From a virus: a stretch of DNA of 30,548 nucleotides. The notes under the pieces are model-generated. The model saw nothing but the letters and a program-made list of their open reading frames with translations. It was not told the origin of the DNA and did no database searches. A program made the position numbers and the translations under genes. Positions 5,921 through 24,941 of the stretch are shown in pieces (position 1 is the stretch's first letter; every line of letters starts with the position of its first letter). The DNA is taken from positions 1 through 30,548 of IMG/VR virus record IMGVR_UViG_3300017750_000057, one strand, 5' to 3'.

Positions 5921-6157
5921 TTATTCTTCGTCCAGTTCTTCTGCAACATCTTCTGGAGCTTCAACAGAAGCTGATAGATTGTTTACAAAGAATTGTCGCG
6001 CAGCCTGGAGCTGTGCCATTTCCATATTAAGGTTACCTACCTTATTATCTAGATTAGTGATCTGAGCAAGCATACCCTTTTGATCATCTGTAAGATTCTC
6101 AATTGCATATTCTTTTTCGTTGATTGTGATCATTTGCTTTTGTTGTTCTTCAGCCAT
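5921..6157 (-). CDS. Small DUF6447-like protein
   Basis: The 78-aa product starts MAEEQQKQMITINEKEYAIE, followed by NLTDDQKGMLAQI. Short proteins with the M-I-T-I-N-x-K-E-Y start are common in marine T4-like phages and I associate them with the DUF6447 family. Residues 25-60 are likely a coiled coil or helix (NLDNKVGNLNMEMAQLQAAR), and the tail is acidic (EDVAEELDEE). The start overlaps the end of the GT4-type gene by 8 bases, with GAGG just inside that gene as ribosome site. It is the last gene of the glycan cassette before a late promoter. Function is not known. Confidence 0.65.
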   Translation of the reverse strand: MAEEQQKQMITINEKEYAIENLTDDQKGMLAQITNLDNKVGNLNMEMAQLQAARQFFVNNLSASVEAPEDVAEELDEE

Positions 6158-7052: not shown

Positions 7053-7878
7053 ATAAGAACCTACACTTCTTCAAAGGACTATCCTCTTGTTTCCAAAAGT
7101 CATATTCCGCATACATATTAAATAAGTCAGAAGGCAGAATTGTTTCTCTCTGCTCAAACTTTACGTCTTTTCTGACTTTGTGCAATCCCTCTATTTTAGC
7201 ATCTGTATCATAATTATCATAAGAAGCTTCGGTATTATTAAAGTCGTGTTCATACCATTCCTCTTCAATGAATTCATATATGTGTTTCATAACCTCTTTT
7301 GGATGAGAAGCTAAAACATCATACTCAATAAACATAATATTTTCTTGCTCTTCACATGCTGCAGCCTGTTTAACAAAATCTAAAGGACCTTTTACTCTGG
7401 CATTTTTATCTGGATATTGTCCCATAAGCATATGACAACGCTCATAAACAGATGCCCAGTCAATGTGATCATATAATGGTTTTATTTTTAGAGGGTTCTT
7501 TCTATGAAGCTTTTCAAAAGAATCTAAAATCCAAGGTATGCTTCGAACTGTAATAATCATTTTAAAGTCGGGGTATAATTGTTTTAGTAAATGAGTGTCA
7601 GCGGCCCATCCTCTACCAGTATTAAAACAAACTTCTGTATCATCTTTATAGAAAGCATCAAAGTCTGCTCTCATAAGGTCGTATAACCTCTCGTCTGGAA
7701 CCACGTCTGCCATTCCCACATTCATATTCACAGCTGTTATTTTACTCTTCACAAAGTCCGCAAGAGGGTCTGATATGCCTGCCGTGAATCTAGGATTCTG
7801 GTTTAAGATAGTAGAAAGCAGTGTAGAACCAGATCGAGGTAACCCTGAGATAAAATTATATTTTTTAGTATTGCTCAT
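7036..7878 (-). CDS. PAPS-dependent sulfotransferase family protein
   Basis: Members of this family move sulfate from 3'-phosphoadenylyl sulfate (PAPS) to a hydroxyl group of a sugar, lipid or protein. I use the ATG at 7878 (MSNTKKYNFISG), giving 280 aa; the longer frame to 7893 begins with TTG and sits deeper in the gene before. The phosphosulfate-binding loop is clear at residues 11-19 (SGLPRSGST), followed by LLSTIL. The 3'-phosphate site fits IITVRSIPWILDSFEKL with Arg112 and Ser120. GAAGAA lies a short distance upstream of the ATG. It overlaps the DUF6165-like gene by 14 bases and the GT4 gene by 17, so it is part of a tight operon of glycan enzymes. The likely acceptor is a sugar made or handled by this cassette; that is inference. 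Confidence 0.85.
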   Translation of the reverse strand: MSNTKKYNFISGLPRSGSTLLSTILNQNPRFTAGISDPLADFVKSKITAVNMNVGMADVVPDERLYDLMRADFDAFYKDDTEVCFNTGRGWAADTHLLKQLYPDFKMIITVRSIPWILDSFEKLHRKNPLKIKPLYDHIDWASVYERCHMLMGQYPDKNARVKGPLDFVKQAAACEEQENIMFIEYDVLASHPKEVMKHIYEFIEEEWYEHDFNNTEASYDNYDTDAKIEGLHKVRKDVKFEQRETILPSDLFNMYAEYDFWKQEDSPLKKCRFLYAETK

Positions 7879-8254
7879 ACGATTTTTCTTCAACTAATTC
7901 TGAACCGGTCATTTCATTAATTTTCTTTTTAACCTCTGACCTCTTATCATTTGTAATGTATACTGACCTAGCTAATTCAATAAATTCGCTATCAAATTCT
8001 TCTAACATTTCTTTTTTTCTTATTTGGTCTTCAATATCCCACAACTCTTTATTAATGCTTTCTAGCATTACAAATTCATTTATAATATCAGGAATACTGT
8101 TTTTAGTCAGACCAGAAAAAACATACTGCAGTTTATCTAGCTCAGCACCGACATTTTTTAGTTTATCTGCGTTTTTAATTTTACGGCTTTTGATTCTTAA
8201 AATTGTAATTTTATCAACCAATTCACCTACACTGATAGGAGTTTCAATAATCAT
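7865..8254 (-). CDS. DUF6165-like protein linked to glycan genes
   Basis: The 129-aa product starts MIIETPISVGELVDKITILR followed by IKSRKIKNADKLKNVGAEL. The P-I-S-V-G-E-x-x-D-K-I-T-I-L start is what I know from the DUF6165 family, which in bacteria tends to lie beside glycosyltransferase and surface-polysaccharide genes. The rest is charged and probably helical, with likely coiled coil from residue 20 to 60. No catalytic motif is evident. It overlaps the GT9-type gene by 4 bases (ATGA) and the sulfotransferase gene by 14, so all are probably made together. A helper or adaptor for the glycan enzymes is plausible but unproven. Confidence 0.72.
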   Translation of the reverse strand: MIIETPISVGELVDKITILRIKSRKIKNADKLKNVGAELDKLQYVFSGLTKNSIPDIINEFVMLESINKELWDIEDQIRKKEMLEEFDSEFIELARSVYITNDKRSEVKKKINEMTGSELVEEKSYEQY

Positions 8255-9162
8255 TTGTGTGCAAACCTTATTTCTTTTTCTTTTGGTTTACGTCCATGAA
8301 CTTTGTTTACATATGTATCATAAACATCTTGAGCGTCTACCATAAGATTACGTGGGTCAGCGATATCCATTTTATAGTATGTGTTATATTTCTTCTTATC
8401 ATGAAATGACATATTATAGTTTTGCATATAACCAAATTGTGTCCATCGCGTGTTACCCCAAATTACAACACCTGAAGTTCCTGCAGATGCTGCAAAATGC
8501 TGGACACAAGAATCAATACCAATAAATCCCTTTGCTTTCTTTAACAGCTCATGTAATACTGGATATGATTTATCACATTTAATTGATCCAGCATAGCCAG
8601 GTTCATTAGGCATACTAGCATCAATAATAGTATGATCCGGAAATTTTTCGTTCAATACATTGACGATACTTTGAGAGAAATATGGATGATAGTTGCGGCC
8701 TGCATTAGAACTAACATATTGGTTATTAGGGTCCCATCCAATTGGAGTTTGCCCACCAGTAAACTGAACCATAATATAGTTTTTAATGTTATTATCTGAC
8801 AACCATTTTTGTGTATCTTCTTTTGCCCAATCGGTATACATTTTAGGACGCATACCAGGATCATATTCAATATCGTGTAGCTTACAATATGCTTGTACTA
8901 AATGCCAATCGCCTTTCACAAAATTGCTTTTGTAAGGTTCTGAATAGTAGATATTATCTGATTCTAAAATTCTTTGATCATCTAATGGAATAGATGACTC
9001 ATCAAAACACATCTTGACAAGAGGATTATCTCTAAACACATCAATATAAGGTGTTACGATTTGAACTGGACCGCCAGCTCTTTCAGCTAGTTTAGGTAAA
9101 AGCGCAGTAAACATAACACATTTACCAATACCACCCTCAACTACATAGGTATCTAAAGACAT
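8251..9162 (-). CDS. GT9-type (heptosyltransferase-like) glycosyltransferase
   Basis: GT9 enzymes are GT-B glycosyltransferases, best known for adding heptose to lipopolysaccharide core. The 303-aa product has the N-terminal loop GGIGKCVMFTALLPKLAE (residues 10-27), corresponding to the G-G-x-G-D loop of the family with Lys at the usual Asp position. It also has the C-terminal donor-site block KGFIGIDSCVQHFAASAGTS (211-230, Asp217 and His222) followed by VVIWGNTRWTQFGY. Length is slightly shorter than the 320-350 usual for heptosyltransferases. It is the first gene behind the sigma70-like promoter at 9190-9218, with GGAG as ribosome site, and leads the cassette of DUF6165-like, sulfotransferase and GT4 genes. 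The sugar donor cannot be told; the nucleotidyltransferase at 19388-20203 hints at a heptose-like sugar. Confidence 0.83.
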   Translation of the reverse strand: MSLDTYVVEGGIGKCVMFTALLPKLAERAGGPVQIVTPYIDVFRDNPLVKMCFDESSIPLDDQRILESDNIYYSEPYKSNFVKGDWHLVQAYCKLHDIEYDPGMRPKMYTDWAKEDTQKWLSDNNIKNYIMVQFTGGQTPIGWDPNNQYVSSNAGRNYHPYFSQSIVNVLNEKFPDHTIIDASMPNEPGYAGSIKCDKSYPVLHELLKKAKGFIGIDSCVQHFAASAGTSGVVIWGNTRWTQFGYMQNYNMSFHDKKKYNTYYKMDIADPRNLMVDAQDVYDTYVNKVHGRKPKEKEIRFAHK

Positions 9163-10755: not shown

Positions 10756-13700
10756 TTAGGCGTAAATTACTTCTGATGTATCTATTGTTGCAACCCATCT
10801 AATACTAGTAGATGATTTACCGGTTACGTTAATTTTTAACGCGCCGTTTGAGGTGTCAGCAACTAGAGCTATACCTCCCCAGCTATCAGCATTAGAAAGA
10901 ACTGTAATAGCTGAATTTACAAGTGTGGTTGTCCCTGCGTTAGCTTCTCTACGTACTAATCCTTCTATTTTAAATGCTGCACTTTCTGTTCCATTAGCCG
11001 CGCTTTCTCTACCTACAATAGTTCCATTAAATGCATATGCAGAATTATTTCTAAGTGTAAATTGGTTGTCCGCAGCAGCAGTTGATATGTTTGCTGTTAG
11101 CGCAGTTACAGTTGCATCTGTAGTAGCTGCTTTTAATATATATAATCCGCGTTGAGCGTCACCTGCTAAATTATACTCTGCGCTGAAACCATCTGTAGCA
11201 ATAGCTACTTTACCTTTAGTGTCTGCAAGGGCTGTTGTACCAATTGCTATAGAATTATCACACGATGCTTTAGAGTATGAACCAAAAGCAAAAGCGTGTT
11301 GACCACAAGATTTAAGACCACCAGTGCCAAAAACGGCGCCGCCACTGGTCACATTGCTCGACCCGAAATAACCTCCGGTTACAGCTACAGCTCCAGGTCC
11401 ACTTGCATTAGCACATGATCCTATTGCTACAGTGTGCTGATTAGTTCCTCGGGCGCAAATACCGAATGCAACAGAACCAGCGCTGGTTACTTGTGACTGA
11501 TATCCTATTGCTACATTACATGTTTGTGTTGCTCTTGCGTTAAATCCTATTGCGACACTACAAGCTCCACACGCGCCCATCGAAGAAGAGTGACTTCCAA
11601 TATTAGCTCCGAACGCCAAACCTCCATTTGTATATGTTCCACAACCCAGCGCAGTTGATGATCCGCCCTGAGTAGTAACAGCATCACCTGCAGCTAGTGA
11701 CCTTGAGCCATTAGCTGTAACATTACCTCCAAGACCAGCACCAATTGCAATTCCTCCTACTCCGGTAGCACGCGCTTGGGATCCAACCGCGGTTGCATAG
11801 TTATTATATGCATAAGAGTTTGGCCCTACAGCTGTGCCATGGTGATAATAATCCCATGGTTTTTCAGCTGCAACATTCCAACTTGCTCCGTTCCAAGCTA
11901 ATGTTATTCCTTTACCTGTATTTAGTTTATACGGATCAGCTGCTGTAAATCCGTTTCCAGAACTCTGAACTCCGATAAATTCTGAGCCATTTGGTTTTAC
12001 ACTAATTACACCTGTACCATCGTTCCAGACTTGTACATTCCATCCAGTGTCAGCTGATGAACCAGCAGGAAGAGTAGCATCTACAGTACCGGAAGTAAAG
12101 CGAATTATTTTTCCTAAATCTCCATCTACAATAGTATAAGCAGAAGTTTTGTTTTCTATTACGTAATCAGATGCACCACCGCCGCCTCCACCAGCAGCTG
12201 CTAGTACAAGGCCTCCGCTAGAAGTGCTATATGTTAGTACATGACCGTCAGTAGACCCAAGACCTGGTATACGTAGCAGGTTGTTGTTAGCATTACCTAA
12301 AGTAATTTCATTAGATACGGTTCCAGCTGATGAACAAGCCCCGGCGCCTAGTATAAGATTGTTACATCCTGTAGTAACACCTCCATCTCCATTTCCAACC
12401 ATAACATTGCAATGTCCAGTAGTTACATTGTTTAATGTTTGATGGCCGATTGCTACGTTTTTACAGCCTTTTACATATTGTAAAGCGCATCCACCTACTG
12501 CAGTATTACCATACCCACAAGCAAGAGATGATCCTCCGGCGCCTGCAAGATACCCCATAGAAACATTCCACCACCCACAGTTAAATGCAGCCGCACAGTA
12601 ACCTACAGCTGTTGAAAACTTGGCAGGGGTTGCATATAATAATGCCTTATGTCCCACAGCTACATTGAATTCACCAGTAGTGTTTGCTTGCAGTGCTTGG
12701 TGACCAACTGCTACGTTACAATTGCCGGTAGTATTATTTTGCTGCGCGGCATAACCAACAGCAACATTATACGTACCAGTAGAAGATCTCAGGCCATACC
12801 CACCAACAGAAATATTGTAATTACCACCAGCTAACTGTTGCGAGTTCATACCCAACGCAATAGCATGCTGTGGCTGAGAACCTAGGTTGCACATCGCAGC
12901 TTCACCAATTGCTATACTATTACGACCGTCTGCGGTTGTCCCTAAATTATACCCTGCTGAATGCCCCAAGGCAATATTGCTATAGCCAACAAGACCATTA
13001 CGCATTGCACATGAACCAAGAGCTGTATTATTATAACCACCAGTGTTTGCATTTAACGAGTTAAATCCTACCGCAGTATTTCTTGTACCGGTTGTATTTG
13101 ATTCTAAAGAATTATTACCAACTGCTACACCATAGGCCGCAGTACCACTAATTGATTTATATGCTTTCCATCCGATAGCAACGTTATTATTTGTTGGTAC
13201 GCCATTTAAAGCGCATTCACCAATACCAATATTTTTAACACCTGAACCATTATAAACAGCTCTTACACCAATGCCAACATTACAGGCTCCAGATGCAAGA
13301 TATCCTGCTAGATAACCAATACTGATACTATTACTTTGAGTAGACATACCATGGCCAGCTTGGTAACCTAATGCTGTGTTACTAGAACCTGTTGTCAAAT
13401 TACAGTGGCTATAGCCGCCTAAGGAAACGTTCCATTTACCGGTAGTTACCTTACAGGCAGATTTGTTACCAACTGCCGTATTACCGTATCCTGTTGTAAC
13501 AGCTGTTAGTCCGTAAGTACCGATAGCTACATTATTAAAAGCGCTTTTATAACACTTCAGAGTATGATGGCCGATACCCACATTACAACCACCGGTGGAA
13601 GCATTACCATATCCAGATTTGAACCCCATAAATATGTTGTTATCACCACTAGTAACAGATCTCATAGCAGCTTTACCGACAGCTACGTTATATCTTCCTG

Positions 13701-16700
13701 CAGTGTTTTGATACATTGCCATCGAACCAACAGCAACGTTAGAGTGTCCAAGAGCGGTAGTTTGCATACTGCGTATAGCATTATACCCGATTGCAACTGT
13801 GTCATATGTATTAACCGCTTGCTTTAAGGCATCTGTACCTATAGCTACGTTCATTACTCCTGTAGTATTTGCTGCCAGGGCGCATATACCTACTGCAGTA
13901 ACATTCCTATCGGTTGCGGTTAATGCAGCTAATGCATTAGTACCTAATCCAACGCTTGTGGCATTAGTCTTAGCATCACTCAGATCATTTATAGCAGATG
14001 CACCACCGCCACCGCCTGATGCGGCTGCTAGTACTAATGAAGTACCGTTGTAACATAATACATCACCAGAAGAAGCGCCTGCAAAAATACCAGGCATTTT
14101 GAAAACAGTATTAGATGTATTGCCAATTACTATTTCATTTGATGTAGTTGTCGATGCAGCTTGTACATTTTGACCAATAAGAATATTGTTACTACCGTTA
14201 ACTAAACTATGACCTGAGCAGTAACCCAAGGCAATGTTATAACAACCGTGGCACATTGATGTTAATGTCATACCACCTACAGCAGTATTACAAAGGCCTG
14301 TTCTATTGGTTTTCATAGAGCAACCGCCAATAGCAACGTTATACCCATCAGCGTGAGCTGTAACACCGCATGAACCATACATTAGTGCATATGCACCTAC
14401 CGCAACGTTATGAGCTGTTGTTTTTCCCCCATACATTGCACAGTCACCAATAGCAACATTGAACTTATTATTATGACCATATTTCATAGCCTGTGTGCCA
14501 ACAGCAATGTTACTACACCCTTGGCGGATCTTATCACCAGCTTTACAACCAATAGCAATGTTATTACTACCCGTTGTTATACCCTGCCCAGCGTGATTAC
14601 CAACAGTAATGTTTTTAGCTCCTGTTGTAGCTGAGTAAAGAGATTGGTAACCTATAGCAACATTTTCAGAAGTGTTAAGACCAGAGTGTGCAGCTTGAAC
14701 ACCAATCGCGACATTCAATCGGCCGCAAGTGTTATATCTCATAGCATCATTACCTACAGCTACGTTACATCCCCCGCAACCTTGCTGTGTCAGCATTGCC
14801 CTTGCACCTACAGCAGTATTCAAAGCGCCAGTAGTCATAGCACCACCAGCGCTAAAGCCCATAAGTGTATTAAAAGTACCAGAAGTTATATTTTGACCAG
14901 CATTACACCCAAATGCAAAGTTATATGTTGTATTATTTGCATTTGCAAGAGCGTTTGTACCTATACCAATTGAATTAGCGTCAGGTGATCTAGCATCAGA
15001 TAGATCATTTATAGCAGATGCACCACCACCACCGCCTGATGCGGCCGATAATACAATACCACCACTAGAAGTACTATACGTTAGCACATGGCCATCTGTT
15101 GATCCTAGGCCTGGAATACGTAGCAAGTTATTACTAGCATTACCAAGAGTAATTTCATTAGATGTGGTCGCTGAAGTTGGTTGAGCATTATATCCTAAAA
15201 CAAGGTTATTAGAACCTGTAGTAATAGTACAAAGTGCATTTGTACCTACAGATGTATTATTATTACCTGTAGTATTTTTATTTTGCGAATTTAACCCGAT
15301 CGCAGTATTCTGGTGACCAAAGGTATTAAGCTTTAAGGCACCATATCCAACGGCTGTATTACAGCAACCGGATGTATTAGCACACATACTTTGAGGGCCA
15401 ACAGTAACGTTATTTTTACCAACAGTCGTTTTTTGTAGACTATTTGTCCCCATTGCTACGTTATAGCAACCCGTGGTTAAACATTTACTAGAACCATAAC
15501 CCATAACAACGTTATTGCCGCCGGTATTGTTTGCAATTAAAGCGTCACGGCCTATAATAATATTGCTACTACCTTTAGCTTGACACCCAGCATTCATACC
15601 AATTGCAATAGTACCATTACCGCAACCACTTCTTAGTGCGCCGCAACCAATCGCAACTCCACCATAAGCATTTGAAGCGCAATTCTCAGCTGCTCTATAA
15701 CCTATCGCTGTTAAAAAGTTATTACCAGTTGCATGCTCTCCAGCACTTTTACCTATTGCAGTCATACCATCTGCAGTAGCATTATCTTTTAAAGCAGCAG
15801 CACCAAATGCAGTATTATAATTACCTCCAGCAGCTATATTAGCACCTGCGTTATCACCGATTGCTGTATTATCATTTGATGTACCAGCACCAGCATTAAT
15901 ACTACCTAAAGCATTATCACCTAGACCTAGGTTATTATCTGTAGTATCATAGATTGCATCACTAAGGCCATTAATAGAAGAAGCACCACCACCGCCACCA
16001 CCTGATGCAGCTGCTAGTACTAATGAAGTACCATTATAACACATTACGTGACCTGATGAAGCGCCTGCTTGCAAACCAGGAATCCTAAACGCTGTAATGT
16101 TAGCATCGCCAAGTGTGATTTCATTATTGGCGGTTGCAGAGCTTGCGGTAGCGCTTCTACCTAGTAAAAGATTGCCACACCCTGTAGTTAAGTTTAGACC
16201 AGCTTGTTCACCTATAGCTGTATTACATTGGCCAGTTGTTAAAGATCTTAAACTTAGTCTTCCCATCGCAACATTGCAACCACCAGTGGTTGCCGCACAT
16301 AAAACTTGATAACCAAGACCGATATTTAATGCCGCAGTGGTAGTTTTCATTCCTGATTGGTGTCCAATATAGACATTGCAATTACCAGCACCTGTAGATC
16401 CAGTACCACACATAGATCCATAGCCAATCGCTATGTTATATTTACCGGTGGTATTATTACGCATAGCGTTACTACCAATTGCAACATTACCATAACACGT
16501 ATTACATGAAAGGCCATAATACCCTATCGCTGTCTGAGATGATCCTCCACATGAGTTAGTATAATGCCCAATAGCAACCGATTGATTGTGAGTGTTTTTC
16601 CATGCGGCCGCATAACCAATGGCAACCGATCTATTTACAGATGTTGAACACTGATGCGCTTGACCAATAGATATATATTGACAACCAGAAGCTACACAAC

Positions 16701-18324
16701 AAGCAGCATTCGCACCAACAGTCGTTGCCCATCTCACATTGGTATTCTTTCGACCAGAATGCGTGCCAATAAAAACGTTATCATAGCCACAAGCCTGATA
16801 ACCTGCTAGATAACCAACTGCAACATTGCAGTTTGATGTAACAGAAGTTCCCATTGCTTGATGACCGATGACAGTATTATAAGAACCTGTAGTTGGATTA
16901 CACAAAGCATTAGTACCTACAACGACGTTTCCTGCACCTGTTGTGTTAGCTTTTAAAGCTTGAGCTCCAATAGCAATGTTATTACTTGCAATAGTATTTG
17001 CATAAAGGGAGCAGAAACCTATAGCTATATTACTAGCTCCGCTGGTATTACTATAGAGTGTTTTACTACCGAGAGCAGTATTATAAGAACCTATAGTATT
17101 GTTTCGAGTAGATCCATAACCAATTACAGTATTTTCAATAGCACATGTATTGCATTGTAGAGCTTTGTGACCAATGGCAAGATTCATACAGCCTGTTGTA
17201 TTACTGCACATTGCTTGATGGCCCATAGCGATGTTATAACCACCAGTTGTATTAGAATACAACGCATATCGACCAAAAGCATGTCCATATTGACCACTTG
17301 TGTTAGCGTATAATGCTCCAAAACCAAATGCATTGTTGTTGTTACCATTATTAACTTTTAAAGCCTGATCACCAAATGCAGAGTTGCTAGATCCAGTAGT
17401 TAATGAGTTTAAAGCACATCGACCAACAGCAGTATTTGAATTAGTAGATCCATCATCGTTAGCTAGAGCACCGGTTCCTAAACCTAAAGATGACACATCT
17501 GGAGACTTACCATCAGATAGACCATCAATATTAGAAGCTCCACCTCCACCCCCAGCAGTAGCCCAAGATACAGTTCCACTACCGTTTGTTGTGAGAACTT
17601 GATTTGCAGATCCGTCTGCAGCAGGTAAAGTAAAAGCATTATTGAATGTTACAGTACCTAAAGCGTTTATAGTTAAGGGGTTGCAATGAGCTGATGGGTT
17701 ATGGCAATAAGTACAAAACTTAATTGTATTACCAGAACTATTAGTCTTCAATTCAAACCCTTGGCCTCCAACATGTTGAAGATGACCAGCTACGCCTGAG
17801 GTTCCACTGTTAAATTCAATTTTACTAGTACCAAAGTTACCAGTACCATCACCAAAAGTTAGCGTTGGGTTACCAGATGCTACACTTGTTGAAATATCAG
17901 CAACATTAGTAATTGTATTACCCTGGCCATCAAGATTTCCTCCAAGTTGTGGAGTTGTATCTTCTACAATATCACTCAGGCCTGACCCTGCTGCAGCTGT
18001 TGAAGCTGCAACGTTGACAAAAACAGGTGTTTCTGCACTATCTTGATAATAAATGTTAAGAGTGCCATCTTGCTTGTCGTACCATAAATCACCAGCTTTA
18101 ACGCCCGTCGGTACATCGCTATCGATGAGTGCTCCAATTTGATGAAGCCGGACATAATCAGAATCTACTAGATTTGAAACTGCTGCAGAATCTAATCCGC
18201 CTCCGCCTCCTCCACCGCCAACAGCAGAAGAGATTGTTGCACTAGTTGTGGCATCAAGAGATGCAATATTTTGTAATTGCCTACTATCATTAACGACTGT
18301 AGTACCTATAATCTTGATGGCCAT
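10756..18324 (-). CDS. Giant tail fibre with YadA-like head repeats (2522 aa)
   Basis: Layout by residue: 1-45, start MAIKIIGTTVVNDSRQLQNI with a poly-Gly linker; about 60-105, a module with GVKAGDLWYDKQDGTLNIYY; 105-255, beta-rich part; then four cassettes of head repeats at about 260-751, 778-1073, 1100-1413 and 1442-2023. Each opens with a D-L-S-D or G-L-S-D motif and closes with NEITLG-A-N-x-x-x-x-R-x-P-G. Repeats are 16-17 residues with core N-x-A-[VI]-G-x-x-A-L, as in trimeric autotransporter (YadA) heads. After 2050 a globular module follows (TSAYTIVDGDLGKIIRFTSG), then shorter, more classical YadA repeats. The tip (last 130 residues) ends SSTSIRWVATIDTSEVIYA. Many repeats hold Cys just before the conserved Asn. 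No S74 chaperone is present. It likely forms a trimeric receptor-binding fibre. Confidence 0.85.
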   Translation of the reverse strand: MAIKIIGTTVVNDSRQLQNIASLDATTSATISSAVGGGGGGGGLDSAAVSNLVDSDYVRLHQIGALIDSDVPTGVKAGDLWYDKQDGTLNIYYQDSAETPVFVNVAASTAAAGSGLSDIVEDTTPQLGGNLDGQGNTITNVADISTSVASGNPTLTFGDGTGNFGTSKIEFNSGTSGVAGHLQHVGGQGFELKTNSSGNTIKFCTYCHNPSAHCNPLTINALGTVTFNNAFTLPAADGSANQVLTTNGSGTVSWATAGGGGGASNIDGLSDGKSPDVSSLGLGTGALANDDGSTNSNTAVGRCALNSLTTGSSNSAFGDQALKVNNGNNNNAFGFGALYANTSGQYGHAFGRYALYSNTTGGYNIAMGHQAMCSNTTGCMNLAIGHKALQCNTCAIENTVIGYGSTRNNTIGSYNTALGSKTLYSNTSGASNIAIGFCSLYANTIASNNIAIGAQALKANTTGAGNVVVGTNALCNPTTGSYNTVIGHQAMGTSVTSNCNVAVGYLAGYQACGYDNVFIGTHSGRKNTNVRWATTVGANAACCVASGCQYISIGQAHQCSTSVNRSVAIGYAAAWKNTHNQSVAIGHYTNSCGGSSQTAIGYYGLSCNTCYGNVAIGSNAMRNNTTGKYNIAIGYGSMCGTGSTGAGNCNVYIGHQSGMKTTTAALNIGLGYQVLCAATTGGCNVAMGRLSLRSLTTGQCNTAIGEQAGLNLTTGCGNLLLGRSATASSATANNEITLGDANITAFRIPGLQAGASSGHVMCYNGTSLVLAAASGGGGGGASSINGLSDAIYDTTDNNLGLGDNALGSINAGAGTSNDNTAIGDNAGANIAAGGNYNTAFGAAALKDNATADGMTAIGKSAGEHATGNNFLTAIGYRAAENCASNAYGGVAIGCGALRSGCGNGTIAIGMNAGCQAKGSSNIIIGRDALIANNTGGNNVVMGYGSSKCLTTGCYNVAMGTNSLQKTTVGKNNVTVGPQSMCANTSGCCNTAVGYGALKLNTFGHQNTAIGLNSQNKNTTGNNNTSVGTNALCTITTGSNNLVLGYNAQPTSATTSNEITLGNASNNLLRIPGLGSTDGHVLTYSTSSGGIVLSAASGGGGGASAINDLSDARSPDANSIGIGTNALANANNTTYNFAFGCNAGQNITSGTFNTLMGFSAGGAMTTGALNTAVGARAMLTQQGCGGCNVAVGNDAMRYNTCGRLNVAIGVQAAHSGLNTSENVAIGYQSLYSATTGAKNITVGNHAGQGITTGSNNIAIGCKAGDKIRQGCSNIAVGTQAMKYGHNNKFNVAIGDCAMYGGKTTAHNVAVGAYALMYGSCGVTAHADGYNVAIGGCSMKTNRTGLCNTAVGGMTLTSMCHGCYNIALGYCSGHSLVNGSNNILIGQNVQAASTTTSNEIVIGNTSNTVFKMPGIFAGASSGDVLCYNGTSLVLAAASGGGGGASAINDLSDAKTNATSVGLGTNALAALTATDRNVTAVGICALAANTTGVMNVAIGTDALKQAVNTYDTVAIGYNAIRSMQTTALGHSNVAVGSMAMYQNTAGRYNVAVGKAAMRSVTSGDNNIFMGFKSGYGNASTGGCNVGIGHHTLKCYKSAFNNVAIGTYGLTAVTTGYGNTAVGNKSACKVTTGKWNVSLGGYSHCNLTTGSSNTALGYQAGHGMSTQSNSISIGYLAGYLASGACNVGIGVRAVYNGSGVKNIGIGECALNGVPTNNNVAIGWKAYKSISGTAAYGVAVGNNSLESNTTGTRNTAVGFNSLNANTGGYNNTALGSCAMRNGLVGYSNIALGHSAGYNLGTTADGRNSIAIGEAAMCNLGSQPQHAIALGMNSQQLAGGNYNISVGGYGLRSSTGTYNVAVGYAAQQNNTTGNCNVAVGHQALQANTTGEFNVAVGHKALLYATPAKFSTAVGYCAAAFNCGWWNVSMGYLAGAGGSSLACGYGNTAVGGCALQYVKGCKNVAIGHQTLNNVTTGHCNVMVGNGDGGVTTGCNNLILGAGACSSAGTVSNEITLGNANNNLLRIPGLGSTDGHVLTYSTSSGGLVLAAAGGGGGGASDYVIENKTSAYTIVDGDLGKIIRFTSGTVDATLPAGSSADTGWNVQVWNDGTGVISVKPNGSEFIGVQSSGNGFTAADPYKLNTGKGITLAWNGASWNVAAEKPWDYYHHGTAVGPNSYAYNNYATAVGSQARATGVGGIAIGAGLGGNVTANGSRSLAAGDAVTTQGGSSTALGCGTYTNGGLAFGANIGSHSSSMGACGACSVAIGFNARATQTCNVAIGYQSQVTSAGSVAFGICARGTNQHTVAIGSCANASGPGAVAVTGGYFGSSNVTSGGAVFGTGGLKSCGQHAFAFGSYSKASCDNSIAIGTTALADTKGKVAIATDGFSAEYNLAGDAQRGLYILKAATTDATVTALTANISTAAADNQFTLRNNSAYAFNGTIVGRESAANGTESAAFKIEGLVRREANAGTTTLVNSAITVLSNADSWGGIALVADTSNGALKINVTGKSSTSIRWVATIDTSEVIYA
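12255..13998 (-). repeat. Fibre cassette 4 of head repeats (approximate limits)
   Basis: The longest cassette of the 2522-aa fibre, from the SAINDLSDAKTNATSVGLG opening to the NEITLGNANNNLLRIPGLG closing. It holds about 35 coils of 16-17 residues by length. Confidence 0.7.
13982..14025. repeat. 44-base near-identical repeat at a cassette junction (copy 1)
   Basis: This stretch matches 15002-15045 with one mismatch in 44 bases. It encodes the poly-Gly linker and the start of a cassette (GGGGGASAINDLSD region). Surrounding repeats are similar in protein but diverged in DNA. Confidence 0.85.
14085..15025 (-). repeat. Fibre cassette 3 of head repeats (approximate limits)
   Basis: Opens with SAINDLSDARSPDANSIGIG and closes with NEIVIGNTSNTVFKMPGIF, a variant closing motif. 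It is followed by a GASSGDVLCYNGTSLVL linker. Confidence 0.7.
15002..15045. repeat. 44-base near-identical repeat at a cassette junction (copy 2)
   Basis: Second copy of the 44-base stretch at 13982-14025, in the same orientation about 1020 bases away. Recombination between them would remove or add one whole cassette in frame, since 1020 is divisible by three. Confidence 0.85.
15105..15990 (-). repeat. Fibre cassette 2 of head repeats (approximate limits)
   Basis: Opens with SSINGLSDAIYDTTDNNLGL and closes with NEITLGNASNNLLRIPGLG. The following linker (STDGHVLTYSTSSGGIVL) is the same type as after cassette 4 and differs from that after cassettes 1 and 3. Confidence 0.7.
16070..17545 (-). 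repeat. Fibre cassette 1 of head repeats (approximate limits)
   Basis: Opens with SNIDGLSDGKSPDVSSLGLG, almost the same as the opening of the first cassette in the 1575-aa fibre. It closes with NEITLGDANITAFRIPGLQ. Confidence 0.7.
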
Positions 18325-19009: not shown

Positions 19010-19357
19010 TTAACCTAGTGTGTCTAGATCAAAGTCATCTACAGCAGACTCTTCAGGTTCTGCGGGTGCTAGATTGAACGCCTCGTAATGTGCGTGAAAT
19101 ACGTGATCATCGATAACAGCAGGCATCATTGCGATGAGTTCTGCCTTTGTGTAGTCAGTTGCTACTTTTGATGGTGTTTCGATTTCAACTGTTTCAGAGT
19201 AATCTGAATTCCATGCTGGTTGTACTGGATCTGCATCTGCATCTCCTGCGTAGGCATAGTTTACTTCGATTTGCCACCGAGTTACTTTATTATCGGACGC
19301 ACGTTTAGTTGGTACCGCTTTTGCAAGCGTTTTAGTTACCGGTGAATATGTAGCCAT
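19010..19357 (-). CDS. Small acidic protein of unknown function
   Basis: The 115-aa product starts MATYSPVTKTLAKAVPTKRA and contains TRWQIEVNYAYAGDADADPV. The second half holds YTKAELIAMMPAVIDDHVFH and the tail is acidic (ESAVDDFDLDTLG). I do not recognise the family. It has a ribosome site AAGGAGT and a T4-type late promoter about 45 bases upstream, inside the end of the gene before it. Small late genes between fibre genes often encode minor virion or assembly proteins, so that is the best guess. Confidence 0.58.
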   Translation of the reverse strand: MATYSPVTKTLAKAVPTKRASDNKVTRWQIEVNYAYAGDADADPVQPAWNSDYSETVEIETPSKVATDYTKAELIAMMPAVIDDHVFHAHYEAFNLAPAEPEESAVDDFDLDTLG

Positions 19358-19387: not shown

Positions 19388-20203
19388 TTATTTCATACCT
19401 TTATTTATAATAGTTCTGCGTTCTATATCTTCTTCAATACATTTATTTCCATACTGTACTTCAAGTATATGACATGGTTTGTCATAAGGATTATAAGCCC
19501 TGTGCCAATCTTCTCTATATATAATGCATGTTTGATGTTGTTTTAAAATGATGGTTTCATCTCGACCTACATTAGTAGATATAATATCACCACGTTCAAT
19601 ATCTATTTTTAGTGAGCCTTCAAGAATATACCAATGCTCATTTCTATGGAAATGCCTCTGATCTGATAATGATTGGCCAGGATTGATTACAAGCTCTTTC
19701 GCTTTAACAGTACCTTTATCATCTAGTACCCGCCAATAACCCCACTCTCGTTCGGTCCTTTGTGTTTTCCATTCATCAAGTATCCAACTACTAGAATTCT
19801 TTTTATTATTTCCACCAACGCCAAATACAAATCCTATGTTACCTTGATCAGCCAAAGATCTTGCGTACTCTACTTCTGGAGTCGACCCTTTATGCCTATC
19901 ACCACCGTTAGCAAATATAATTTGTGAACCTTTAGGGAAATTTTCTCTGATATGATTAATGGCGTTTACAGCATGATCTTCATCATCATTAAAGGCAAAA
20001 GCCATACCAACGCCCTTAATATTATCGACTATTTCTAATCTTTCTTCAATAGGCATGAACGGTCTACCTTTTTTACGAGTTAGCCATTCATCACTATTTA
20101 CTCCTACACATAATATATCTCCAAGTTTTTTTGCTTCTTGGAAATACTTTACATGACCAGAATGCAGGGGATCAAAGCCCCCTGTCACTAAAACTACTTT
20201 CAT
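19388..20203 (-). CDS. Fused sugar-phosphate nucleotidyltransferase (RfaE/HldE-C-like) and mannose-6-phosphate isomerase type II-like cupin
   Basis: Residues 1-145 form a cytidylyl/adenylyltransferase domain: VLVTGGFDPLHSGHVKYF with the H-x-G-H motif (His14, His17), GVNSDEWLTRKKGRPFMPIE, and FANGGDRHKGSTPEVEYARS. This pattern is closest to the C-terminal half of HldE, which makes ADP-heptose from heptose 1-phosphate. Residues 150-271 form a cupin like the end of GDP-mannose pyrophosphorylase/PMI proteins: VKAKELVINPGQSLSDQRHF, then HRNEHWYILEG, with His184, His186 and His190 as likely metal ligands. Both domains look intact. It lies ten bases after the 1575-aa fibre gene, with GGAG before the ATG. 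It probably prepares an activated sugar for the glycosyltransferases nearby. The exact sugar is unknown. Confidence 0.83.
   Translation of the reverse strand: MKVVLVTGGFDPLHSGHVKYFQEAKKLGDILCVGVNSDEWLTRKKGRPFMPIEERLEIVDNIKGVGMAFAFNDDEDHAVNAINHIRENFPKGSQIIFANGGDRHKGSTPEVEYARSLADQGNIGFVFGVGGNNKKNSSSWILDEWKTQRTEREWGYWRVLDDKGTVKAKELVINPGQSLSDQRHFHRNEHWYILEGSLKIDIERGDIISTNVGRDETIILKQHQTCIIYREDWHRAYNPYDKPCHILEVQYGNKCIEEDIERRTIINKGMK
19402..19409 (-). promoter_or_regulatory. T4-type late promoter inside the end of the cupin fusion gene
   Basis: Minus strand TATAAATA, read in frame as part of the Ile-Ile-Asn codons near the C-terminus of the fusion protein. The start of the 115-aa gene lies about 45 bases downstream. 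Confidence 0.6.
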
Positions 20204-20213
20204 AATTACTCCA

Positions 20214-20483
20214 TTATATTTTAGATTTCAACTCATTAATTTGATGCTGTTGATCTTGAACTGCTTGTACAAGGAAGGCAATAATCTGTGAATAATTAAC
20301 AACCTTCTTACCTTCTATATTAGTTGATACTGCTTCAGGAATCAACTGTTCTAGTTCCTGAGCGATGACACCGTAAGACTTTTTACCATCTTTCTTCCAA
20401 GTAAAGCTAACAGGATTAATACTATTAACAATATCTAAACCATCCTCAATTGTTTCAATGTTTTCTTTGAGTGTTACATCTGA
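20214..20483 (-). other. S74 self-cleaving chaperone domain of the 1575-aa fibre
   Basis: Residues 1487-1575. The expected cut site is before Ser1487 in NATSDVTLKEN, with Lys1492 as the partner of the Ser-Lys dyad. The domain ends in a coiled helix typical for the family. Confidence 0.8.
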
Positions 20484-23400
20484 TGTAGCATTAAAGTCAA
20501 CTGCACTTACTTGTCCACCACTATTTATACTATAGCTTAGAGCTGGTATTCTCATTGCTGTAATGTTAGCATCACCAAGTGTGATTTCATTAGAAGTTGT
20601 AGCCGATGTTGCTTGAGCATTATAACCTAAAGTTAGATTATTACATCCACTAGAAATGGTCCTACCAGCCTCTGCACCAACCGCTGTATTGCACCTACCA
20701 GTTGTTACAACACACAAAGTTGCATACCCAAAACCAGTATTTAGTTGACATTTTGATTGTCTCAGAGAGCCATACCCTACAGCAGTATTACAAGAACCAG
20801 TTATATTAGCACCCAAGGTTTGCATACCAACAGCTACGTTTAACCAACCTGTAGTATTTGCTGACAGCGCAGTATCACCAACCGCAGTATTCCTAGCACC
20901 ACACACGTTTGATTTTAATGCGTTATATCCTACAGCTGTACCGTAGTTTGCTTGGTTAGAGGTTAAAGAACAGTGTCCTAGTGCAGTGTTTCTTTTACCA
21001 CTTACGTTTGCTTTTAATGAGCCATACCCTACAGCGGTATTACAACTCCCAGTGGTATTACCACATAAAGCGTTAAAACCAATAGCAAGATTTGCATTAG
21101 CACATGTATTACTTGCTAGTGATCTAAACCCTATTGCTATATTACAAGATCCTGTTGTATTCTGACAAAGGTTATATCCACCAATAGCAACATTACATTT
21201 ACCAGTCGTATTTAATTGAAGTGCAAAATTACCAAATGCTGCGTTTATGTCACCTGTTGTATTAGATTTTAAAGCCTCTTGTCCAAAGGCGTTATTAGTT
21301 GAACCAGTAGTATTTGAACATAATGCAGAAGACCCAACAGCAGTATTAAAACAGCCAGTAGTATTTGAACATAATGCTTTTACACCTATTGATGTATTTT
21401 GACTACCAAATGTAGTGAGATACATAGAATATAGACCAACAGCAGTGTTATTATTTCCAGTCTTGTTATTACACAAAGCTGATTTACCGATTGCTGTAGT
21501 ACCGGTAGCAGTAGTATTACAATAGCCAGCACCATATCCAACATATACATTGTTATCAGCATTGTTATATCTACCAGCACCGAATCCAACAGCGACATTG
21601 GAACCTTTACCTGCTCCATTATTATACAATGCTTCAGCACCAAGAGCAACGTTGTGAATACCAGTCGTTGAGTTCAACATAGCTGAACTACCAACCGCTG
21701 TGTTACCTCTTGCGCTTCCATTCATTAATCTAGCTGCGCATCCCCCAATAGCAACGTTTTGATAACCAGTAGTTAATGAAGCAAGTGAACAATGACCAAT
21801 AGAAACGTTCCTATTATAACCAGTGGTCAAACTTTTTTGAGAACAAGAACCAATTGCAACACCATAACATGCACTTACATTAGCATAAGATGCACAATCA
21901 CCAAGCGCGACGTTTTGGTGAGCAATAGTAACAGAACCTAGAGCTCCTCCACCTACAGCTATATTATTATGCCCTGTAGTGAGAGCATCAAGAGTAGAAG
22001 AACCTAGAGCTATGTTTGAATTGCCAGAAGATCCACAGCGCATAGCTCTATGACCGATAGCAATGTTTTGTGAACCGGGTTGATTACCTTCATGAGCCTG
22101 CCAGCCAATTGCAACACCGTATTTTGTTGTAGTGCCTAGATAGTTATATTGACCAAGAGTGGAGTTACCATACCCTGTAGTTACTCTACATGCTGCTTGA
22201 TTACCTATAGTAGTGCTTGGAGATGTATTAGTGCTGTTATATCCTGCTTGGCATCCAATAGATACTTGATATCTAGTATTAGTACCACATTTGTTGGCTT
22301 CATAACCTATAGATACGTTACCATATCCCTGTGCATTGCAAAATAATGCACAGGTTCCAACCGCAACATTACACTTACCAGTAGTGTTTGTAAATAGAGC
22401 GCACATACCCGCAGCAACGTTATCAGATCCAAGAGTATTCATTCTCATTGAAAGATGACCTACAGCGGTGTTATGACACCCTGTAGTTTGAGCCATCAAA
22501 GAAAATGTACCCACAGCAACGTTACAACTGCATTTATTATTGTACAATGTGTTTTGGCCAACCGCAGTATTACCATAACCAGCAGTATTATGCCTTAAAG
22601 CTGAAAATCCAACCCCTACGTTTCTTTTTGCGATTGTAGTGTTCTTCATAGCTTGGCTACCTACAGCCACATTTTGACATCCACTAGTAGCAGTTTCAAG
22701 GGTTTGAGCACCTATCGCAACATTGTCGGTACCTGTATTATTGCACCTCATGGAGCACCAACCAACAGCAGTGTTTAGATAACCTTGAATGTTACAACCA
22801 AGAGTTAAATGTCCTATAGCGGTATTTTGATAACCAGTGGTATTAGCACATAAAGCGTTAATACCTACAGCAAGATTACAATTAGAAGACCCATCGTCAT
22901 TTGCTAAAGCACCAGATCCTAATCCTACAGAAGTTGCATCTGGCGATTTACCATCTGACAAATCATCGATAGCAGATGCTCCGCCGCTGCTTGCAGCTGC
23001 TAGAACCAATGATGTACCATTGTAACACATTACGTGACCAGAGGATGCGCCTGCTTGTAGTCCGGGAAGACGAAATACTGTGTGCGCTGTTGAACCTAGA
23101 GTAATCTCATTAGATGTAGTCGCTGAAGATACATCAGCACAGCAACCTAATACAATATTGTTTGATCCAGTTGTTAAAGAAACGCCAGCACTTCTACCGA
23201 TAGCAGTGTTGTGTGTGCCAGTAGTTAGATTACATAATGCAAAGCTACCAACAACTGTATTACCTTCAGATGTTGTGACAGAGCTCATTGATAAGTAACC
23301 AACGGCTACGTTACAGCAAGAAGTAGTAGCGCTTCGCATTGCATCTGATCCGACTATAGTATTACCATGTCGTTTAATTGTTTTACCAGCACAATGACCG

Positions 23401-24941
23401 ATAGCAACGTTATTAACCCCACAGAAATATGCTGAATGAGTACCAATAGAAACGTTTTGACCGCAGTTACCAAAAGTACCTGCAAACGCACCTAATGCAA
23501 CGTTGCATGAAGCAGTTGTGGTAGTGTAACCTGCACCATCACCAAAATATGCATGATACTGCCCTGTAGTGGTGTTTAATCCCGCATCTCTACCTACAGC
23601 TGTATTGCAACTAGCACTAGTAGTACATGCCAGAGCTCTACATCCAACCGCAGTATTATTGTTACCAGTAACTTTACTTGTTAAAGCCTGGTAACCAATA
23701 GCAGTATTACCATAACCTGTTGTATTGCTTTGTAAAGCCGAACCGCCGACAGCTGTATTAAATTTACCAGTAGTATTACCATATAATGATGCATCACCTA
23801 TAGCAATGTTTTGACACCCGGTGGTGTTTTTACGTAACGCGTATGAACCAACAGCAACGTTACATTTACCTATAGTATTAAGCTGTAAAGCACAAGCACC
23901 TAGGGCAGTATTTCTTTCACCGGTTGTTGTGCTACATAGCGATCGATAACCAACGCTTGTGTTATAGTTTGTTGATCCATCGTCGTTTGCTAGAGCACTA
24001 GATCCCAATCCTATAGAAGTTGCATCTGGAGATTTACCATCAGAGAGACCATCGATATTCGAAGCGCCACCGGAAGGCAAATTTGTCAATCCAGACCCAT
24101 CGCCAGTTACAGCAGTAGCTGCAAGTGTACCTGTTACTGTTGCACCTGTTGAGGTCGTTTCAAACTTTTTAGAGCCTGAATGATATAAGTCTACCGCACC
24201 AGTAGCGCGAAGTGTTATTCTATCAGAATTAGACACTTTCATGTCTACGTCTTTATTAGATATTATTTGAAAATTTCCAGAACCTGATTGATTATAGGTA
24301 ATGTTTGTTTCGTTAACAGTTAAAGCTGAGCCTATTGTCGCGCCGCCCGTTACAGAAATACCGGTGCTAGATGTCTCAAGTTTGGTGCTATTATTATGCT
24401 TTAATGTTATTGCACCCGCTGGGTTGATAACCAGCGCATTTACCGATCCGCCTGCGTTTCTAAAATAATGATTTCCAGCTTGATATTGAGCATTAAAACC
24501 ACCCGCGTTTATTCTAAAAGTATTAGGGTCGTACTCAATGCTTACATCGCTATCCGAGCCAAAATACAATTTGACATTATCATTGAGTTTTACGTCACCA
24601 GTAAACGTGCCACCAGCTAATGGCATTTTAGTAGAATCAGCTGCAGAAACCCAATCGTAATCAGATCCGCTCCAGCTTAGAACTTCCCCTGAAGCTGCTG
24701 TACTTTGATTTAAATGTGTATTAACTGATGCATCGTTATAACTACCAGCTGCAGTAATAGCAGCGTTAATCTGAGTCTGAACATTGTCAGAGTCAGCAAA
24801 GCTCTTAATTACATTTGAGGAGTTTTTATAGTAGAGATTACCATCAGCATAGTTAATGGCTAACTCACCATAATCAAGATCACTAGTCCCTGGAGCATTA
24901 CTCGAAACAGAGGACTTCTTTAGTTTAATCGTAGCTGTCAT
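20214..24941 (-). CDS. Giant tail fibre with YadA-like repeats and S74 chaperone (1575 aa)
   Basis: Residues 1-60 (MTATIKLKKSSVSSNAPGTS, then LDYGELAINYADGNLYYKN) are an N-terminal fibre module well known from marine phages. Residues 60-290 are beta-rich without Cys (for example LKLNDNVKLYFGSDSD-type strands). Two cassettes of 16-17-residue head repeats follow at about 292-627 and 652-1465. The end is an intramolecular chaperone of the S74 (endosialidase) type: SDVTLKENIETIEDGLDIVN from Ser1487, with Lys1492, then SYGVIAQELEQLIPEAV and a final helix VQDQQHQINELKSKI. In known members the chaperone helps trimer folding and cuts itself off at the Ser. The mature fibre would then end just before residue 1487. 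It heads the group with the nucleotidyltransferase-cupin and GT-A genes. Confidence 0.88.
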   Translation of the reverse strand: MTATIKLKKSSVSSNAPGTSDLDYGELAINYADGNLYYKNSSNVIKSFADSDNVQTQINAAITAAGSYNDASVNTHLNQSTAASGEVLSWSGSDYDWVSAADSTKMPLAGGTFTGDVKLNDNVKLYFGSDSDVSIEYDPNTFRINAGGFNAQYQAGNHYFRNAGGSVNALVINPAGAITLKHNNSTKLETSSTGISVTGGATIGSALTVNETNITYNQSGSGNFQIISNKDVDMKVSNSDRITLRATGAVDLYHSGSKKFETTSTGATVTGTLAATAVTGDGSGLTNLPSGGASNIDGLSDGKSPDATSIGLGSSALANDDGSTNYNTSVGYRSLCSTTTGERNTALGACALQLNTIGKCNVAVGSYALRKNTTGCQNIAIGDASLYGNTTGKFNTAVGGSALQSNTTGYGNTAIGYQALTSKVTGNNNTAVGCRALACTTSASCNTAVGRDAGLNTTTGQYHAYFGDGAGYTTTTASCNVALGAFAGTFGNCGQNVSIGTHSAYFCGVNNVAIGHCAGKTIKRHGNTIVGSDAMRSATTSCCNVAVGYLSMSSVTTSEGNTVVGSFALCNLTTGTHNTAIGRSAGVSLTTGSNNIVLGCCADVSSATTSNEITLGSTAHTVFRLPGLQAGASSGHVMCYNGTSLVLAAASSGGASAIDDLSDGKSPDATSVGLGSGALANDDGSSNCNLAVGINALCANTTGYQNTAIGHLTLGCNIQGYLNTAVGWCSMRCNNTGTDNVAIGAQTLETATSGCQNVAVGSQAMKNTTIAKRNVGVGFSALRHNTAGYGNTAVGQNTLYNNKCSCNVAVGTFSLMAQTTGCHNTAVGHLSMRMNTLGSDNVAAGMCALFTNTTGKCNVAVGTCALFCNAQGYGNVSIGYEANKCGTNTRYQVSIGCQAGYNSTNTSPSTTIGNQAACRVTTGYGNSTLGQYNYLGTTTKYGVAIGWQAHEGNQPGSQNIAIGHRAMRCGSSGNSNIALGSSTLDALTTGHNNIAVGGGALGSVTIAHQNVALGDCASYANVSACYGVAIGSCSQKSLTTGYNRNVSIGHCSLASLTTGYQNVAIGGCAARLMNGSARGNTAVGSSAMLNSTTGIHNVALGAEALYNNGAGKGSNVAVGFGAGRYNNADNNVYVGYGAGYCNTTATGTTAIGKSALCNNKTGNNNTAVGLYSMYLTTFGSQNTSIGVKALCSNTTGCFNTAVGSSALCSNTTGSTNNAFGQEALKSNTTGDINAAFGNFALQLNTTGKCNVAIGGYNLCQNTTGSCNIAIGFRSLASNTCANANLAIGFNALCGNTTGSCNTAVGYGSLKANVSGKRNTALGHCSLTSNQANYGTAVGYNALKSNVCGARNTAVGDTALSANTTGWLNVAVGMQTLGANITGSCNTAVGYGSLRQSKCQLNTGFGYATLCVVTTGRCNTAVGAEAGRTISSGCNNLTLGYNAQATSATTSNEITLGDANITAMRIPALSYSINSGGQVSAVDFNATSDVTLKENIETIEDGLDIVNSINPVSFTWKKDGKKSYGVIAQELEQLIPEAVSTNIEGKKVVNYSQIIAFLVQAVQDQQHQINELKSKI
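20522..20529 (-). promoter_or_regulatory. Possible late promoter inside fibre gene
   Basis: Minus strand TATAAATA within the codons for Ser-Ile-Asn before the S74 domain. It is about 320 bases upstream of the nucleotidyltransferase-cupin start. In coding DNA this may be chance. Confidence 0.25.
20545..22985 (-). repeat. Second cassette of head repeats in the 1575-aa fibre (approximate limits)
   Basis: Opens with SAIDDLSDGKSPDATSVGLG and closes with NEITLGDANITAMRIPAL. About 813 residues, the longest cassette in the window. Confidence 0.7.
23060..24066 (-). repeat. First cassette of head repeats in the 1575-aa fibre (approximate limits)
   Basis: Opens with SNIDGLSDGKSPDATSIGLG and closes with NEITLGSTAHTVFRLPGLQ. 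The linker that follows (GASSGHVMCYNGTSLVL) is also found after cassette 1 of the 2522-aa fibre. Confidence 0.7.

What the first reader, a model, noticed from the sequence alone, without database searches (positions are those of the whole stretch)
19388..20203. Nucleotidyltransferase-cupin fusion between two fibre loci
One 271-aa protein joins an HldE-C-like nucleotidyltransferase (HSGH motif) to a mannose-6-phosphate isomerase-like cupin (His184, His186, His190). A single polypeptide could activate a sugar phosphate and change or bind it. With a GT9 (heptosyltransferase-like) gene in the same region, a phage-made route to an activated heptose-like sugar is possible. No kinase or epimerase is present in the window, so it would have to draw on host intermediates.
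Basis: partly seen in the sequence, partly recalled or inferred. Interest (0 to 1): 0.62.

Follow-up and report, generated by a model that had tools for sequence, protein, structure and literature searches.

The report
Two-headed sugar-activating enzyme in marine phages
A marine phage carries one protein that joins a sugar-phosphate isomerase to an enzyme that attaches a nucleotide; the same uncharacterised two-headed protein is common in marine phages and in the SAR11 bacteria of the ocean, and it probably makes an activated, mannose-like sugar for surface glycans.

Summary
The fusion is real. It lies on the minus strand (20203..19388, 271 aa), in the tail-fibre 'host recognition' region of a T4-like marine myovirus fragment. 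An HxGH nucleotidyltransferase (NT) domain is joined by a short linker to a type II phosphomannose-isomerase (PMI) cupin. The architecture is not peculiar to this phage: 80 of 80 retained IMG/VR relatives are full length. It is also a near-core gene of SAR11 (22 of 26 genomes) and occurs in SAR86 and Patescibacteria. Both active sites are intact in 125 of 125 distinct full-length proteins. The heptose reading is not supported: heptose kinase is over cut-off in 2 of 33 genomes with the fusion, and three of five HldC substrate motifs are changed or absent. Genomes with the fusion and GDP-mannose dehydratase lack any other recognisable PMI or ManC. Best reading: a ManC-like enzyme for the first and last steps of an activated-sugar pathway, with a non-homologous NT domain, feeding glycosyltransferases. 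Relatives lie beside KpsC-like glycosyltransferases, one beside the window's own GT9-like/sulfotransferase cassette. Substrate and nucleotide are unproven.

The parts
19388..20203 (-). NT-cupin fusion gene, 271 aa (ATG at 20203, stop at 19388)
   Evidence: Pfam; full-length relatives; purifying selection
19772..20203 (-). N-terminal HxGH nucleotidyltransferase domain (residues about 1-144): TGGFDPLHSGH, NSD, KKG, ER, NGGDR, PE, NSSS
   Evidence: Pfam PF01467; H14, H17, K44, R55, G101, D102, E110 and S137-S139 identical in 125 of 125 homologues
19391..19771 (-). C-terminal type II PMI-like cupin domain (residues about 145-271); S180, Q182, H184, R187, E189, H234
   Evidence: PF01050; invariant in 125 of 125; model mbff45139fdb3 matches Thermococcus phosphomannose isomerases 7zvm/7zvy, TM 0.83-0.85 by target length
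20209..20212 (-). Shine-Dalgarno-like GGAG, 5 nt before the ATG
   Evidence: sequence upstream of the start, TGGAGTAATTATG
20214..24941 (-). tail fibre with C-terminal S74 intramolecular chaperone, directly upstream (10-bp gap)
19010..19357 (-). 115-aa protein of unknown function, next gene downstream; conserved at this place in L002-L004
18335..18994 (-). 219-aa GT2-like protein (phrog_1574; Pfam Glycos_transf_2 only weak, E 0.019)
10756..18324 (-). 2522-aa tail spike/fibre-like virion protein on the other side of the NT-cupin gene
8251..9162 (-). GT9-like glycosyltransferase (PF01075 just over its cut-off, partial match)
   Evidence: homologue adjacent to the NT-cupin cassette in L025
7865..8254 (-). 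DUF6165 protein, partner of the GT9-like gene
7036..7893 (-). sulfotransferase; its homologue directly precedes NT-cupin in L025
6150..7052 (-). GT4-type glycosyltransferase

Best explanation
The gene encodes a bifunctional enzyme that works like ManC, catalysing the first and last steps of an activated-sugar pathway. The cupin is a metal-dependent PMI-type aldose-ketose isomerase, most likely fructose-6-phosphate to mannose-6-phosphate or a manno-configured analogue. The HxGH domain transfers a nucleotidyl group to the sugar-1-phosphate (or related phosphate) that a host mutase makes in between. In the phage the product would feed phage-encoded glycosyltransferases (and the sulfotransferase) of the fibre region, remodelling the surface glycan of the infected host or glycosylating fibres. 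Shown: both domains, both intact active sites, purifying selection, the recurrent linkage to glycosyltransferases and the cellular distribution. Inferred: catalysis, the mannose-type substrate, the nucleotide and the biological target.
For: All four PMI functional residues described for types I and II (Ser, Gln, His, Arg in the shared 9-residue motif; PMC9602691) correspond by motif pattern to S180, Q182, H184, R187 and are identical in 125 of 125 proteins; so are E189 and H234, the remaining metal ligands. The structure model matches solved PMIs, and the cupin aligns with a plasmid-borne ManC at QKHFHRAEHW. The NT catalytic set is identical in 125 of 125. In nine genomes with the fusion and GDP-mannose dehydratase over cut-off, no type I PMI is found, the only strong PF01050 is the fusion itself, and TIGR01479 matches only the fusion's cupin strongly, its GMP part drawing nothing in the SAR11 genomes beyond one marginal hit. 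The GT-A nucleotidyltransferases examined there were GlmU-, RfbA-, MurU- or COG1208-like, none over a guanylyltransferase cut-off. In 55 of about 75 phage loci the neighbours include a glycosyltransferase family whose model matches KpsC/WbbB. L025 joins the fusion to the GT9-like/sulfotransferase cassette.
Against: No substrate or nucleotide is known. Characterised HxGH enzymes use ATP or CTP (own knowledge), so a guanylyltransferase would be without precedent that I know of. Genomes G034, G035 and G055 carry a stand-alone NT domain and no PF01050 protein at all, so the NT domain does not always need the isomerase. H186 and H190, conserved in the ManC motif, vary, so the cupin's substrate may differ. 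The 'missing PMI and ManC' argument rests on draft genomes of unstated completeness, and a MurU-like protein could be the guanylyltransferase.
Confidence: 0.5

Rival explanations
1. One reading: a heptose-type route. The cupin replaces GmhA (sedoheptulose-7-phosphate isomerase) and the NT domain is an HldC-like adenylyltransferase, giving ADP-heptose for the GT9-like transferase.
For: The closest curated NT models are the heptose adenylyltransferase domain (69.9 bits) and phrog_7878. The GGD...PE pattern is shared with BpHldC 5x9q. The GT9-like gene is linked to the fusion in L025. S7P to manno-heptose-7-P is chemically parallel to F6P to M6P (own knowledge).
Against: Below the heptose cut-off of 181.5 bits. 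Of the HldC substrate motifs TNG/NSD/KG/EXTP/KGG (PMC7993394), TNG and KGG are altered to TGG and NGG and EXTP is absent; the Phe placed against adenine is replaced by the GVGGxxKxNSSS loop. Heptose kinase is over cut-off in 2 of 33 and GmhA in 0 of 25 genomes with the fusion.
Confidence: 0.12
2. A CDP- or CMP-type route: the NT domain is a cytidylyltransferase for a polyol phosphate or acidic sugar, feeding KpsC-like transferases, and the cupin makes the precursor, for example arabinose-5-phosphate.
For: The NT domain also resembles PCYT2 and TagD cytidylyltransferases. The commonest phage neighbour models as a KpsC/WbbB-like GT-B fold. Four phage loci (L007-L010) carry a DAHP/KDO8P-synthase-like gene and a CTP_transf_3 gene near the fusion.
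Against: 19 of 25 genomes with the fusion already have KpsF, the usual arabinose-5-phosphate isomerase. CMP-Kdo synthetase is a different fold. The score is far below the TagD cut-off (43 against 165.4 bits).
Confidence: 0.18
3. The cupin is not a catalyst in this context but a sugar-phosphate-binding or oligomerisation module that regulates the NT domain.
For: H186 and H190 vary widely. Stand-alone NT domains exist in genomes without a PF01050 protein, and the same SAR86 place (pntB-X-gyrA) holds either the fusion or the NT domain alone.
Against: The six catalytic/metal residues are invariant in 125 of 125, which a mere binding module would not need. Genomes G036, G057 and G058 have both pieces as separate genes.
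Confidence: 0.15
4. The protein belongs to nucleotide or coenzyme metabolism (NMNAT/PPAT-like) and its place among fibre genes is incidental.
For: Distant similarity to PPAT and NMNAT models.
Against: Recurrent neighbours are glycosyltransferases, methyltransferases and sulfotransferase; the PMI domain is unexplained.
Confidence: 0.05

Closest known systems
ManC/AlgA (mannose-1-phosphate guanylyltransferase / mannose-6-phosphate isomerase, TIGR01479)
   Same: Same C-terminal PF01050 cupin with the QxHxxRxEhW motif, and the same plan of nucleotidyltransferase plus isomerase in one chain.
   Different: ManC's NT domain is the GT-A-like NTP_transferase fold; here it is an unrelated HxGH domain about half the size. 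The score is 55.7 bits against a cut-off of 372.95, through the cupin only.
HldC / HldE C-terminal domain (TIGR02199)
   Same: HxGH nucleotidyltransferase with NSD, KG and GGD...PE elements.
   Different: Below cut-off; two of five substrate motifs altered and one absent; distinct NGGDR and NSSS signatures; fused to a cupin instead of a kinase.
Stand-alone NT proteins of cyanophages (S-SSM7, S-SCSM2R, P-TIM68; phrog_7878)
   Same: About 46-48% identical over the NT domain, in T4-like marine phages.
   Different: No cupin; located next to DNA polymerase/uvsX.
Cyanophage S-SCSM1 monofunctional type II MPI (PMC9602691)
   Same: Phage-borne type II PMI domain with the four conserved functional residues.
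   Different: No NT domain.
Pelagimyophage host recognition cluster genes (PMC7029224: 'rfaE' and glycosyltransferases between vrlC and gp14)
   Same: Same genomic setting (fibre region next to neck genes) and probably overlapping gene content.
   Different: The paper annotates rfaE and mentions no cupin or mannose; that its rfaE is this fusion was not tested.

Membership tests
HxGH cytidylyltransferase-like superfamily (PF01467) | HxGH motif, downstream basic residues and C-terminal Ser/Thr motif, over gathering score | tested here: met
   52.1 bits against 21; motif residues 125 of 125
Heptose-1-phosphate adenylyltransferase (HldC/HldE-C, TIGR02199) | score over the equivalog cut-off of 181.5 bits | tested here: not met
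   69.9 bits
Heptose-1-phosphate adenylyltransferase (HldC/HldE-C, TIGR02199) | substrate motifs TNG, NSD, KG, EXTP, KGG (PMC7993394) | tested here: not met
   NSD and KG kept; TGG and NGG instead of TNG and KGG; EXTP absent
Heptose-1-phosphate adenylyltransferase (HldC/HldE-C, TIGR02199) | heptose kinase in the same genomes | tested here: not met
   over cut-off in 2 of 33 genomes with the fusion; phage hosts themselves not tested
Glycerol-3-phosphate cytidylyltransferase (TagD, TIGR01518) | score over the cut-off of 165.4 bits | tested here: not met
   43 bits
Type II phosphomannose isomerase domain (PF01050) | score over gathering | tested here: met
   66.3 bits against 23.6
Type II phosphomannose isomerase domain (PF01050) | Ser/Gln/His/Arg functional residues of the shared motif and Q-H-E-H metal set | tested here: met
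   125 of 125; literature
Type II phosphomannose isomerase domain (PF01050) | full QxHxHRxEHW signature including both extra histidines (as in the ManC aligned here) | tested here: inconclusive
   complete in the window protein and in L165 ManC, but H186/H190 are replaced in about half of viral and most cellular relatives
Type II phosphomannose isomerase domain (PF01050) | isomerase activity | not testable with these tools
   needs an enzyme assay
Bifunctional ManC (TIGR01479) | GT-A-type guanylyltransferase domain and score over 372.95 bits | tested here: not met
   55.7 bits, cupin part only; works-like claim only

The most novel reading that the evidence does not exclude
The protein is a second, convergently assembled ManC: an HxGH-family nucleotidyltransferase replaces the GT-A guanylyltransferase and, with the PMI cupin, supplies GDP-mannose (or another NDP-mannose) in SAR11, one of the most abundant bacterial groups, and in marine phages. 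It would fill an apparent gap in SAR11 genomes that have GDP-mannose dehydratase but no recognisable PMI or ManC.
Probability: 0.22. Interest if true: 0.72.

Novelty: new variant of a known kind. Interest (0 to 1): 0.5.

Why it matters
The fusion is a conserved, uncharacterised gene of SAR11 (conserved beside polA and an MFS transporter) and of very many marine T4-like phages, yet current annotation names its relatives only by the NT half ('rfaE', 'glycerol-3-phosphate cytidylyltransferase'). If it is a ManC analogue it would supply a missing step of mannose activation in SAR11 and give a defined, testable enzyme for how marine myophages remodel host or virion glycans. Its invariant residues make the test easy.

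Tried and rejected
Megablast of half the window against isolate phages gave nothing. Papers searched for an NT-cupin fusion gave no hit. I first took the loss of H186/H190 in relatives as decay of the cupin site; alignment to solved PMIs and ManC showed that the metal set is Q182/H184/E189/H234, so that reading was dropped. Arabinose-5-phosphate isomerase as the cupin's main role was weakened because most fusion-bearing genomes already have KpsF. The search for GT-A guanylyltransferases in GDP-mannose-dehydratase-bearing SAR11 genomes gave GlmU-, RfbA-, MurU- or COG1208-like proteins and no clear GMP, but a MurU-like protein cannot be excluded. Sequence profiles of the two neighbour families found no solved relative; only the fold search of the first gave an answer. 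The tree nests most viral sequences together with some SAR86 ones, beside a SAR11 clade, but rooting and transfer direction are not resolved.

Full report
What is there. The gene is on the minus strand, 20203 to 19388, ATG start, 271 aa, with GGAG five bases before the start. It is packed between co-directional genes with gaps of about 10-30 bp: a 1575-aa fibre with an S74 chaperone upstream, then a 115-aa protein, a 219-aa weakly GT2-like protein and a 2522-aa spike/fibre-like protein downstream. Neck genes (head closure Hc2, adaptor Ad2) lie at 614-2242, and a GT4/sulfotransferase/DUF6165/GT9-like cluster at 6150-9162. This matches the 'host recognition cluster' that earlier work places between vrlC and gp14 in pelagi- and cyanomyophages, with glycosyltransferases and rfaE among its genes (PMC7029224). 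The window is a virus record of 30.5 kb.

The domains. Residues 6-83 match PF01467 and 149-262 match PF01050, both over their curated cut-offs. AlphaFold on 28 viral sequences gives mean pLDDT 85, with an alpha/beta N-terminal domain and a beta-barrel C-terminal domain; pTM 0.60 leaves the interface uncertain. Foldseek matches Thermococcus phosphomannose isomerases 7zvm/7zvy with TM 0.83-0.85 by target length. The NT domain's best sequence relatives of known structure are ethanolamine-phosphate and glycerol-3-phosphate cytidylyltransferases and BpHldC.

The active sites. I aligned 63 distinct viral and 62 distinct full-length cellular-genome homologues. H14, H17, K44, R55, G101, D102, E110 and S137-S139 of the NT domain are identical in all 125. 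So are S180, Q182, H184, R187, E189 and H234 of the cupin. The PMI metal set is Gln, His, Glu, His (C. albicans Gln111, His113, Glu138, His285; PMC3765361; PMC10069634), and the residues cited for types I and II are Ser, Gln, His and Arg (PMC9602691). The alignment to Thermococcus PMI and the spacing put Q182, H184, E189 and H234 on the metal positions. The linker from S139 to W154 is exactly 14 residues in all 63 viral proteins.

Distribution. A scan of IMG/VR found 298 stretches encoding a relative; the 80 kept are all full-length fusions. In bacterial genomes the fusion occurs in SAR11, SAR86, Patescibacteria, Woeseia and others. Some records filed under bacteria look like phage contigs (L086, L092, L131, with neck- or fibre-like genes). 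In SAR11 it is conserved between polA and an MFS transporter (polA named here from its sequence, the transporter by Pfam) and is found in 22 of 26 family genomes at 62% identity or more, one of them a fragment. On the tree the SAR11 proteins form one clade (100/94), beside a group that holds the viral proteins and one SAR86 clade; rooting is arbitrary.

What it does. Against heptose: the NT domain scores 69.9 bits with a cut-off of 181.5; of the motifs given for HldC (PMC7993394) it keeps NSD and KG but has TGG and NGG and no EXTP; heptose-7-phosphate kinase is over cut-off in 2 of 33 genomes with the fusion, the heptose adenylyltransferase domain in 1 of 25 and GmhA in 0 of 25, though five have near-cut-off relatives. 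For a PMI/ManC-like role: type I PMI is absent in 25 of 25; the only strong PF01050 is the fusion itself in the gmd-positive genomes; nine of 25 have GDP-mannose dehydratase over cut-off; TIGR01479 matches only the fusion's cupin strongly, and its guanylyltransferase part gives nothing in the SAR11 genomes apart from one marginal hit in G001; and the GT-A nucleotidyltransferases examined are GlmU-, RfbA-, MurU- or COG1208-like. So in those genomes the fusion is the only recognisable PMI and a candidate for the missing guanylyltransferase. This is an inference from draft genomes.

Phage context. In about 75 viral loci the commonest neighbour is an uncharacterised 300-aa family, present in 55 loci, often as tandem copies, and next downstream of the fusion in 41. 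Its model (pLDDT 90) matches KpsC, WbbB and KrkA Kdo transferases in the top 22 hits, at modest TM 0.3-0.6, and one member reaches PF05159 weakly: a GT-B glycosyltransferase by fold, donor unknown. Other neighbours are FkbM methyltransferases, GT25 and a weakly GT8-like family with a DxD motif. In L025 the homologues of the window's GT9-like, DUF6165 and sulfotransferase genes sit directly beside the fusion, followed by a 1094-aa protein part of which is weakly similar to the window's GT2-like protein. Four loci (L007-L010) add a DAHP/KDO8P-synthase-like and a CTP_transf_3 gene. The product is therefore most likely used in glycan building; whether on the host surface or on the virion cannot be told.

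Verdict. A real, conserved, bifunctional-looking enzyme with both active sites intact. It works like ManC but is not a ManC (different NT fold) and is not an HldC or TagD by their cut-offs. Novelty: a new variant of a known kind. Interest rests mainly on its wide distribution and on the testable ManC-analogue hypothesis.

Noticed in passing
L034:2522-3433 and 162 further copies in 55 viral loci: Tandem, rapidly diversifying 300-aa family next to the NT-cupin gene; no Pfam or PHROG match for the representative, but its model matches KpsC/WbbB Kdo transferases.
   Followed up: partly
L007-L010 (e.g. L010:8456-9881, L007:2310-3135): Phage loci with a DAHP/KDO8P-synthase-like gene and a CTP_transf_3 gene (possible phage-borne CMP-Kdo-type steps), plus an APS-kinase-like gene and a second short HxGH protein.
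   Followed up: partly
L109, L115, L127 against L141 (SAR86 pntB-X-gyrA): The same chromosomal place holds either the NT-cupin fusion or a stand-alone NT gene; G034 (L141) and G035 (L152) have no PF01050 protein at all.
   Followed up: partly
window 10756-18324, 20214-24941, 28781-30352: Three fibre/spike proteins that match the same three PHROGs repeatedly (phrog_6002, 4636, 23837): repetitive, apparently paralogous fibres.
   Followed up: no
window 6150-9162: GT4, sulfotransferase, DUF6165 and GT9-like genes in one cassette; a sulfated glycan made with phage enzymes is possible.
   Followed up: partly
L131:4486-6669: A 727-aa ORF in which the NT-cupin is preceded by an extra N-terminal region similar to the separate upstream gene of L086.
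   Followed up: no
window 3040-5052: 670-aa protein with no Pfam or PHROG match between the neck genes and the fibre genes.
   Followed up: no
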